From OCS116 cluster bacterium AG-435-F03 (GTDB lineage Bacteria > Pseudomonadota > Alphaproteobacteria > MED-G09): a stretch of DNA of 64,000 bases. The position numbers and the translations under genes were made by a program. The notes beneath the pieces were generated by a model, which searched no databases, had not been told where the DNA came from, and saw only the letters and a list, made by a program, of their open reading frames with translations. The first letter of the stretch is position 1. Each line of letters opens with the position of its first letter. Positions 46,924 through 48,228 of the stretch are shown here, piece by piece. The stretch is taken from contig QCOV01000002.1 in assembly GCA_003212795.1 (NCBI GenBank), positions 1 to 64,000 of the forward strand. The letters are read 5' to 3'.

Positions 46924-47493
46924 ATGCAACTTAAGACACTTTTAATCACTATTATTTTAGCAATAATTTTTCTATTTTTTTTACTACTAAATGAATTTAA
47001 TTTGTTATCCAAAAAGAATGGTTGGGAACTAAAAAATAATACGAATTTTGATTCAATAGTGGTTTTAACTGGGAAATTTGATCGAATAAAAAAAGGATTT
47101 GAATTGCTGGAAGCTAATTATTCCAAAAAAATGTTCATTTCTGGAGTTAATCCCATCGTGAAAAAAAATGAATTAAGAAAAATCATTATCCCTAACAATT
47201 CAACTGAGAAAATTAATTTATTTGATTGTTGTGTTTTTATTGGAAAAGAAGCAAAAAATACAAAAACTAATGCTGTTGAAGTAATAAAATGGATGAAAAA
47301 AAATAATTTGATTTCTGCAATTCTTGTTACTTCAGATATCCACCTTCCTAGAAGCATTTTAGAATTTCAAAATAACACCAATCATATTAAAATCACATCA
47401 TGGCCTGTTAAAACTAATAGCAATAATTTTATTAATTTTTCAAAGGAATTTTTAAGATTTAGTTTTGTTCGTATTAAATACTTAATTATATGA
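46924..47493 (+). CDS. YdcF-like (DUF218) membrane protein
   Basis: The 189-residue protein has one N-terminal membrane helix followed by a DUF218 domain: NFDSIVVLTGKFDRIKKGFELLEANYSKKMFISGVNP, the EAKNTKTNAVEV region and VTSDIHLPRSILEF. It is shorter than E. coli YdcF/SanA and lacks the usual tail. Relatives take part in envelope functions with unknown chemistry. It precedes plsC; its TGA at 47491-47493 sits in the ribosome-binding site of plsC, so the two are coupled. Confidence 0.78.
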   Translation: MQLKTLLITIILAIIFLFFLLLNEFNLLSKKNGWELKNNTNFDSIVVLTGKFDRIKKGFELLEANYSKKMFISGVNPIVKKNELRKIIIPNNSTEKINLFDCCVFIGKEAKNTKTNAVEVIKWMKKNNLISAILVTSDIHLPRSILEFQNNTNHIKITSWPVKTNSNNFINFSKEFLRFSFVRIKYLII

Positions 47494-47496
47494 GGT
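47492..47496 (+). promoter_or_regulatory. Ribosome-binding site of plsC with no standard start codon
   Basis: GAGGT lies six bases before an ATA at 47503 and three before an ATT at 47500. No ATG, GTG or TTG occurs in the plsC frame between the stop at 47491-47493 and the ATG at 47638. Confidence 0.55.
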
Positions 47497-47502
47497 ATAA
47501 TT

Positions 47503-48228
47503 ATAAATAAAATTTTATCATATATATCAGTTACAATTTTTTTTACAATTACTGCTATTATAGCTTTAGTAGGCCTTCCTTTATTATTTTTCCCAAGAAA
47601 ATATACCGCTCTATTAATCCACTCTTGGTCTAAATTAATGCTTTTTTTATTTAAAAGATTTGATGGCTTAAATTGGGTAGTGATCGGAGAAGAGAATATT
47701 CCTAACACGCCATTTATTATTGCATCAAAGCATCAGTCAATCTGGGATACAATTTTTTTTACAGCTTATTTTAGTGATGCAGCTATGGTTCTAAAAAAAA
47801 TATTAATTTATTTACCCGCCTATGGATGGCACGCAGTTAAAGCTAAGATGATTTGGGTTGATAGAAAAGCTAAAGGTAAAGCATTGAAACAATTACTTAA
47901 AATGGCAAAAGAATGTTCTAGCAATAATAGACCAATTGTTATCTTTCCAGAAGGAACAAGGGTAAATGTTGGTGAAAAAGGAGACTATAAATCTGGTTGT
48001 TTTGCTTTATATAAATATCTTGATATCCCATGTATTCCTGTAGCGTTAAACTCTGGTCTATATTGGCAAACAAAAGGATATGGAAGAGAAGAAGGCACTA
48101 TAAAAGTAAAATTTCTAAAAGGAATAGAGCCCGGGCTTCCAAAAAAAAATTTTCAATCATTGTTGGAGGATAGAATTGAAACAGCCTCAGAGGAACTTTT
48201 AATAAATAAAAATAATGAAAAAAAATAG
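47503..48228 (+). CDS. plsC: 1-acyl-sn-glycerol-3-phosphate acyltransferase PlsC, non-ATG start
   Basis: PlsC adds the second acyl chain to lysophosphatidic acid. The acyltransferase motif H-x4-D is KHQSIWD, and FPEGTRV is the second motif. The first in-frame ATG (47638) would remove the family's N-terminal hydrophobic helix. That helix is encoded upstream: NKILSYISVTIFFTITAIIA then LVGLPLLFFPRKY, in frame from 47506. I therefore extend the gene to ATA 47503 (ATT 47500 is the alternative), just after GAGGT. This gives 241 residues, with the active site at H77 and D82. Either a rare initiation codon is used or the sequence holds an error here. The gene overlaps the DUF2125 gene by 14 bases. 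Confidence 0.75.
   Translation: MNKILSYISVTIFFTITAIIALVGLPLLFFPRKYTALLIHSWSKLMLFLFKRFDGLNWVVIGEENIPNTPFIIASKHQSIWDTIFFTAYFSDAAMVLKKILIYLPAYGWHAVKAKMIWVDRKAKGKALKQLLKMAKECSSNNRPIVIFPEGTRVNVGEKGDYKSGCFALYKYLDIPCIPVALNSGLYWQTKGYGREEGTIKVKFLKGIEPGLPKKNFQSLLEDRIETASEELLINKNNEKK

What the first reader, a model, noticed from the sequence alone, without database searches (positions are those of the whole stretch)
47491..47640. plsC has no standard start codon, but its missing N-terminus is encoded in frame
Between the ydcF stop (47491-47493) and the first in-frame ATG (47638) the frame is open for 48 codons. It encodes a hydrophobic helix plus FFPRKY, the expected N-terminus of alphaproteobacterial PlsC. 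No ATG, GTG or TTG is present in that stretch. A GAGGT site sits six bases before an ATA (47503) and three before an ATT (47500). Either plsC is initiated from a rare AUA or AUU codon, which could limit its expression as AUU does for infC, or the sequence is in error here.
Basis: partly seen in the sequence, partly recalled or inferred. Interest (0 to 1): 0.55.

Follow-up and report, generated by a model that had tools for sequence, protein, structure and literature searches.

The report
Lipid enzyme gene starting at AUA
In a group of small, probably marine bacteria, a gene for a membrane-lipid enzyme has lost its normal start codon and seems to be translated from a rare AUA (or AUU) codon, an arrangement kept in six related genomes and resembling that of the gene for the protein that polices start codons.

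Summary
The plsC-like frame is open for 48 codons from the ydcF stop (TGA 47491-47493) to its first standard start, ATG 47638. Sequencing error is very unlikely: six of seven genus genomes have the gene and all six keep the frame, TGAGGT, ATT 47500 and ATA 47503. The extension evolves as protein (Sd/S 0.67, Nd/N 0.08 against the most distant). In sister genus g3, 9 of 9 complete genes have an ATG in the column of GGT 47494, now part of the Shine-Dalgarno site. ATA 47503 is the best candidate (aligned SD spacing 7; ATT 4): the 17 infC loci found in the family also show ATA at spacing 7. Against: two of the six genomes have a standard codon 11-12 codons in, and there is no expression data. AUA/AUU initiation 0.8 (AUA about 0.6, AUU about 0.2); +1 frameshift, UGA readthrough and a short form from 47638 are weaker rivals. 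IF3 control is inferred. A third gene on the contig, rsmG, may start at CTG. New member of a known kind.

The parts
46924..47493 (+). ydcF-like gene (DUF218), ends TGA 47491-47493, in the same frame as plsC
   Evidence: ORF; Pfam PF02698 44.5 bits, over its cut-off 27.6
47490..47492 (+). ATG overlapping the ydcF stop (ATGA), out of frame with plsC; ATG AGG TAT AAT TAT AAA TAA
   Evidence: ATG in 5 of 6 g1 genomes, the sixth (G002) reads N at 47490
47492..47496 (+). Shine-Dalgarno site GAGGT, overlapping the ydcF stop
   Evidence: 6 of 6 g1 genomes; aligned spacing to ATA 47503 = 7, ATT 47500 = 4, ATA 47497 = 1
47494..47496 (+). GGT: column of the ATG start in sister genus g3
   Evidence: 9 of 9 g3 loci with a complete N-terminus have ATG in this column, g2 has AGA
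47500..47502 (+). ATT, second-best start candidate
   Evidence: 6 of 6 g1 genomes
47503..47505 (+). ATA, best start candidate of plsC
   Evidence: 6 of 6 g1 genomes; SD spacing 7, as at the 17 of 17 infC ATA sites found in the family
47494..47637 (+). start-less N-terminal extension, 48 codons; hydrophobic helix and FFPRKY
   Evidence: frame kept and under purifying selection
47503..48228 (+). plsC-like gene read from the proposed ATA start (241 codons and TAG)
   Evidence: PF01553 81 bits over cut-off 23
47638..47640 (+). first in-frame standard start, ATG; residue 49, inside the second predicted N-terminal helix
   Evidence: low-confidence model
47731..47748 (+). HX4D catalytic motif (HQSIWD)
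   Evidence: sequence; motif meaning recalled
47944..47961 (+). FPEGTR motif
   Evidence: sequence; motif meaning recalled

Best explanation
The plsC-like acyltransferase is translated from a non-canonical start codon, most probably AUA 47503 (AUU 47500 second), selected by the GAGGU Shine-Dalgarno site that overlaps the UGA of ydcF. Shown by sequence: absence of a standard start, conservation of SD and codons in six genomes, purifying selection on the extension, and an ATG in the sister genus in the column now read GGT. Inferred: (1) a ribosome ending ydcF, or a fresh 30S, sits on GAGGU and starts at AUA, 9 nt after the UGA, with fMet; (2) the poor AUA pairing and IF3 proofreading keep PlsC output low and coupled to ydcF; (3) because IF3's own gene appears to start at AUA in this family, PlsC and IF3 would share the same IF3 sensitivity.
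For: Five other g1 genomes keep the frame from 47494; four of the six (G000, G003, G004, G005) have no standard start before the 47638 column. ATT 47500 and ATA 47503 in 6 of 6; GAGGT in 6 of 6; ATA 47497 is GCA in G002. Extension G000 against G002: Sd/S 0.667, Nd/N 0.080, and both shifted frames hold stops in all six. In 9 of 9 complete g3 genes the ATG is in the GGT 47494 column, and 14 of 15 class-level rows show a standard start at or before the helix. Aligned SD spacing is 7 at ATA 47503 and 7 at the 17 infC ATA sites found, in 16 genomes. An SD match of 5 or more bases, at spacing 1-14, occurs at 234 of 5000 random window positions. AUA and AUU starts are reported for S. aureus infC, ccpN, citZ (AUA) and cvfC1 (AUU); reporters of the last three gave about 10% of AUG, ccpN up to 30% (PMC13009471, passages).
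Against: No expression, ribosome-profiling or peptide data. Five of the six g1 genomes are close (82% amino-acid identity only to G002), so the codon conservation is weak statistically: 15 Ile codons are conserved as Ile in all six, and 8 of them use one codon in all six. Two of six, G001 (TTG, codon 12) and G002 (ATG, codon 11), do have a standard codon near the front, so for them a slightly shorter protein is possible. ATA and ATT are common codons in this 31% GC genome (3.3% and 5.1% of codons; GC of the window), so a well-spaced ATA is not rare by itself. The SD is 5 bases, not extended. G002 has N at 47490. The anti-SD could not be read: no 16S match was returned for the own genome.
Confidence: 0.8

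Rival explanations
1. Start at the overlapping ATG 47490 (ATGA, coupled to ydcF) followed by a +1 frameshift into the plsC frame before TAA 47508.
For: ATG present in 5 of 6 g1 genomes with the sixth unread; -4 nt (ATGA) overlaps are frequent and coupled (PMC10666635, passages).
Against: No SD-like run precedes ATG 47490 (my reading); GAGGT lies after it; I see no known slippery site in the six codons; the TAA 47508 that bounds the short frame is absent in G001 and G002 (A at 47508), so the arrangement is not kept. The ATG follows from ydcF ending ATA TGA.
Confidence: 0.07
2. UGA readthrough: ydcF and plsC are one in-frame reading unit and a YdcF-PlsC fusion is made by reading UGA 47491.
For: The two genes are in one frame in 6 of 6 g1 genomes and the stop is TGA in all six.
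Against: Release factor 2 (TIGR00020, 508.7 bits, over its cut-off) is present and 6 of 61 window ORFs, ydcF included, end in TGA, so UGA looks like a normal stop. In g2 and in 9 of 9 complete g3 loci the ydcF frame differs from the plsC frame. The GA of TGA is explained by GAGGT.
Confidence: 0.04
3. Only a short protein from ATG 47638 (196 aa) is made; the extension is not translated.
For: It is the first standard start and keeps both catalytic motifs.
Against: The extension is under amino-acid selection, g3 and class-level relatives begin before it, and the short form would lack the first N-terminal helix and half of the second (low-confidence model); in T. maritima PlsC an N-terminal two-helix motif anchors the enzyme (PMC8753187, passages). 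No SD is seen before 47638 (TCCACTCTTGGTCTAAATTA).
Confidence: 0.05
4. Sequencing or assembly error hides an ATG.
For: AT-rich stretch; G002 has N beside it.
Against: Six assemblies agree base for base from 47491 to 47496 and from 47499 to 47507.
Confidence: 0.02

Closest known systems
infC (IF3) genes with AUU, AUC or AUA starts and IF3 autoregulation
   Same: Conserved non-standard start of the AUH type behind an SD; the infC of this same family appears to use ATA at the same aligned spacing 7 (17 of 17 loci found)
   Different: plsC is not a translation factor; the trait is limited to g1 (and perhaps g2), not family-wide; IF3 response untested
Streptomyces sigR, GTC start repressed by IF3 (PMC5472188, passages)
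   Same: A non-infC gene whose non-standard start would put it under IF3 repression, and which annotation based on ATG/GTG/TTG gets wrong
   Different: Codon GTC, shown by experiment; plsC codon AUA/AUU, shown only by comparison
S. aureus ccpN and citZ (AUA), cvfC1 (AUU) (PMC13009471, passages)
   Same: Non-infC genes with AUA/AUU starts; ccpN and cvfC1 described there as conserved
   Different: The S. aureus infC, cvfC1 and ccpN sites are said to have extended SDs; here 5 bases, overlapping the stop of the gene before
Termination-reinitiation at overlapping gene pairs (PMC10666635, passages)
   Same: Stop of ydcF overlaps the SD, proposed start 9 nt further on
   Different: Those pairs use mostly standard starts; coupling here not tested

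Membership tests
Bacterial gene with a non-canonical (AUA/AUU) start | No in-frame ATG/GTG/TTG at the true 5' end | tested here: met
   none before 47638 in the window and in G003-G005; G001 and G002 have one only at codon 12 and 11, inside the hydrophobic stretch
Bacterial gene with a non-canonical (AUA/AUU) start | Candidate codon conserved among relatives | tested here: met
   ATT 47500 and ATA 47503 in 6 of 6 g1 genomes with the gene; low divergence limits the weight; g3 has ATG instead
Bacterial gene with a non-canonical (AUA/AUU) start | SD at working distance | tested here: met
   GAGGT, aligned spacing 7 to ATA
Bacterial gene with a non-canonical (AUA/AUU) start | Initiation at that codon shown by peptide, profiling or mutation | not testable with these tools
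   no expression data
IF3-repressed gene (infC, sigR) | Yield falls with more IF3 and rises in infC fidelity mutants | not testable with these tools
   none
PlsC / 1-acylglycerol-3-phosphate acyltransferase | PF01553 acyltransferase domain over the curated cut-off | tested here: met
   81 bits, cut-off 23
PlsC / 1-acylglycerol-3-phosphate acyltransferase | TIGR00530 over its curated cut-off | tested here: not met
   78.8 bits against 102.95; so 'PlsC-like', not a certified member
PlsC / 1-acylglycerol-3-phosphate acyltransferase | HX4D and FPEGTR motifs | tested here: met
   HQSIWD and FPEGTR in the translation; motifs recalled
PlsC / 1-acylglycerol-3-phosphate acyltransferase | N-terminal two-helix membrane anchor | tested here: inconclusive
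   helices 2-26 and 35-57 predicted, but mean pLDDT 53.8
UGA-recoded gene | UGA not a general stop, RF2 lost | tested here: not met
   RF2 present; 6 of 61 ORFs end in TGA
Programmed +1 frameshift gene | Conserved short frame with start, slippery site and stop | tested here: not met
   stop TAA 47508 missing in G001 and G002; no slippery site recognised by eye

The most novel reading that the evidence does not exclude
In this lineage (PS1/OCS116 by the titles of three relatives) non-standard starts form a small IF3-sensitive set: infC (AUA, family-wide), plsC (AUA in g1, perhaps AUU in g2 at the same aligned codon), and rsmG (CUG in most of g1). By this, membrane phospholipid synthesis and 16S rRNA methylation would rise and fall with initiation fidelity, and annotation of such genomes limited to ATG/GTG/TTG would truncate or miss several conserved genes.
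Probability: 0.2. Interest if true: 0.65.

Novelty: new member of a known kind. Interest (0 to 1): 0.45.

Why it matters
Few non-canonical bacterial starts have been characterised by experiment (so stated in PMC5472188, passages), and prediction that assumes ATG, GTG and TTG misses them. A lipid-synthesis gene that lost its ATG and stayed under selection across a genus gives a natural test of whether such starts are tolerated accidents or kept for low, IF3-coupled output. It also suggests how such starts can arise: the column of the sister genus's ATG is now part of the SD, three codons before the new start. Practically, annotation from 47638 would cut the N-terminal membrane part off the predicted enzyme.

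Tried and rejected
Sequence error: rejected by six agreeing assemblies. ATA 47497 as start: GCA in G002 and SD spacing 1. General UGA recoding: RF2 present, TGA used as stop. Start at 47638: see rivals.

g2 (G007, one genome): a TTG lies in frame, three codons before the AGA that aligns with GGT 47494, without an SD match; AGGAG lies after it, and the ATT in the ATA 47503 column is at spacing 6. Ambiguous, so not counted for either side. Grouping of g1 with g2 in the plsC tree has weak support (69/27), so one loss of the ATG in a common ancestor is not shown.

Structure: AlphaFold2 from six close rows gave mean pLDDT 53.8; I ran no fold search on it. The PDB sequence search found one relative, 5kym, aligned only from residue 60 on, so it says nothing on the N-terminus. 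16S anti-SD: no RF00177 match in the own genome. PlsC paralogues: three other PF01553 proteins match NCBIfam acyltransferase models, none over the curated cut-off, so I could not show that this gene is the only LPAAT. Literature: a search for plsC, start codon and AUU gave one unrelated mitochondrial paper; infC, AUU and alphaproteobacteria gave none; non-AUG starts in marine bacteria, in the terms tried, gave none; infC with AUA listed three papers, of which I read passages of one; the 64-codon study (PMC5397182) is not held and is known here only as quoted in other papers. Passages on IF3 and codon-anticodon strength (PMC10158994) were seen but carry no weight here.

Label slips: the printed label 'cod@ATA47503' is really the GGT 47494 column; my notebook entry says 10 of 10 g3 genes, the right count is 9 of 9 complete plus one cut by a contig end (L017).

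Full report
What is there. The window holds ydcF-like 46924-47493 (+), then a plsC-like acyltransferase whose frame is open from 47494 to TAG 48226-48228, then an ORF starting at ATG 48215. Between the ydcF TGA and ATG 47638 the plsC frame has 48 codons and no ATG, GTG or TTG. GAGGT is at 47492-47496, ATT at 47500, ATA at 47503 and also at 47497. An ATG at 47490 overlaps the ydcF stop but is in another frame and meets TAA at 47508. The protein matches PF01553 (81 bits, cut-off 23) and stays under the cut-off of TIGR00530 (78.8 against 102.95), so I call it PlsC-like.

Is it more than chance. In long ORFs of the contig, ATG+GTG+TTG make up 3.2% of codons, so 48 codons without one have a chance of about 0.21. 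The absence alone is not strange. Its place is: among 237 ORFs of 100 codons or more on the 254,719-base contig, 4 have 48 or more start-less codons at the front: infC (65), rsmG (62), plsC (48) and a 102-codon ORF that looks spurious to me (50).

Relatives in the genus. Of the seven genus genomes searched, own included, six have the gene; G006, 67% complete, does not. Titles of the five matching records name PS1 clade or OCS116 (three) and Rhodobiaceae (two MAGs). All six keep the frame from 47494 with the same TGAGGT and the same ATT and ATA; ATA 47497 is GCA in G002, and G002 has N at 47490. G001 and G002 carry A instead of T at 47508. Against the reading: G001 has an in-frame TTG at codon 12 and G002 an ATG at codon 11 of the open frame, inside the hydrophobic stretch; the window and G003-G005 have nothing before the 47638 column. 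Between G000 and G002 the extension (47506-47637) has Sd/S 0.667 and Nd/N 0.080, the rest of the gene 0.489 and 0.099. So the extension is read as protein to the same standard as the enzyme core.

Relatives in the family and class. In genus g3 nine of nine genes with a complete N-terminus have an ATG in the column of GGT 47494; the tenth is cut by a contig end. In g2 (G007) that column is AGA, inside an AGGAG site, and the column of ATA 47503 is ATT; an in-frame TTG three codons before the AGA has no SD match. Of 15 class-level rows that my motif found (of 28), 14 show a standard start at or before the helix; one shows none in the part displayed. So a standard start at the head of the helix is the common state, and g1 most likely lost it. 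The plsC tree supports g1 (98/97) and g3 (95/94) but joins g2 to g1 only weakly (69/27).

Which codon. The aligned spacing, from the base paired to the last G of AGGAGG to the start, is 7 for ATA 47503, 4 for ATT 47500, 1 for ATA 47497. Among 59 window ORFs taken from their first ATG, 20 have an SD match of 4 or more bases, 12 of them at spacing 5-8 and two at 3-4. The first ATG is not always the true start, so this is rough. The infC of the own genome lies just beyond the window (G000:C2:64175-64744) and has no standard start before its conserved core, nor do the other 15 loci printed; in 17 of 17 loci from 16 of 18 family genomes an ATA follows GGAG at aligned spacing 7. My pattern, written, asked for GGAG and ATA with the letters around ATA, but allowed 6 to 12 bases between them. 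This points to ATA 47503 and makes it likely that the lineage uses AUA.

How it most likely works. Inferred: the ribosome ending ydcF stands on UGA, whose GA is part of GAGGU; the 30S, kept or newly bound through GAGGU, takes AUA 47503 into the P site with initiator tRNA. AUA pairs badly at its third base, so yield should be low. In S. aureus reporters AUA and AUU sites gave about 10% of AUG, one up to 30% (passages of PMC13009471); E. coli values are far lower, up to about 1% for ATA and about 0.3% for ATT as quoted from the 64-codon study by others (passages of PMC12864459 and PMC10666635). IF3 represses such starts in E. coli and Streptomyces (passages of PMC5472188). If IF3 acts so here, PlsC and IF3 itself share a control point. 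None of this was measured.

Rivals. A +1 shift from ATG 47490, UGA readthrough into a YdcF-PlsC fusion, and a short form from ATG 47638 are listed with their evidence. The fusion idea has one real point in its favour, the shared frame in all six genomes, but RF2 is present, TGA ends 6 of 61 window ORFs, ydcF included, and in g2 and the nine complete g3 loci the ydcF frame differs from the plsC frame. The short form would lose one and a half of the two predicted N-terminal helices (low confidence), which in T. maritima PlsC anchor the enzyme (passages of PMC8753187).

Other genes. rsmG (G000:C2:201668-202306) also lacks a standard start for 62 codons; a CTG is kept in 5 of 5 g1 loci that hold its N-terminus, four without and one (G002) with an ATG four codons earlier; the g3 relatives shown have GTG, TTG or ATG. 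It is only a candidate: no SD match of 5 or more bases precedes the CTG, and the one such match in the start-less part is AGGAGG at spacing 5 before an ATT at index 34 of the frame (counted from 0), inside the conserved protein.

Novelty. AUA and AUU starts are known (infC, and the genes). Searches for plsC with AUU starts and for AUU infC in alphaproteobacteria found nothing relevant in the held library, which lacks most subscription journals. I therefore file this as a new member of a known kind, with modest interest, raised by its conservation and by the infC match in the same family.

Noticed in passing
G000:C2:64175-64744 (L023, L046), just right of the window: infC has no ATG/GTG/TTG before its conserved core; an ATA behind GGAG at aligned spacing 7 in 17 of 17 family loci found, so IF3 probably starts at AUA in the whole family.
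   Followed up: yes
G000:C2:201668-202306 (L053, L056): rsmG/gidB lacks a standard start for 62 codons; a CTG is conserved in 5 of 5 g1 loci with that part; G002 has an ATG four codons earlier. Candidate CUG start; an AGGAGG with ATT behind it lies further in.
   Followed up: partly
L009 (G007, genus g2): plsC has AGGAG after its only nearby standard start (TTG) and an ATT in the column of ATA 47503, so it may start at AUU.
   Followed up: partly
47382-47708, - strand: A 108-aa GTG ORF antisense to the ydcF-plsC junction; probably a mechanical ORF, not a gene.
   Followed up: no
G000:C2:122349-122879 (L049): A FYDLN-motif protein with no ATG at all in its 176-codon frame; a TTG at codon 23 is the likely start.
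   Followed up: no
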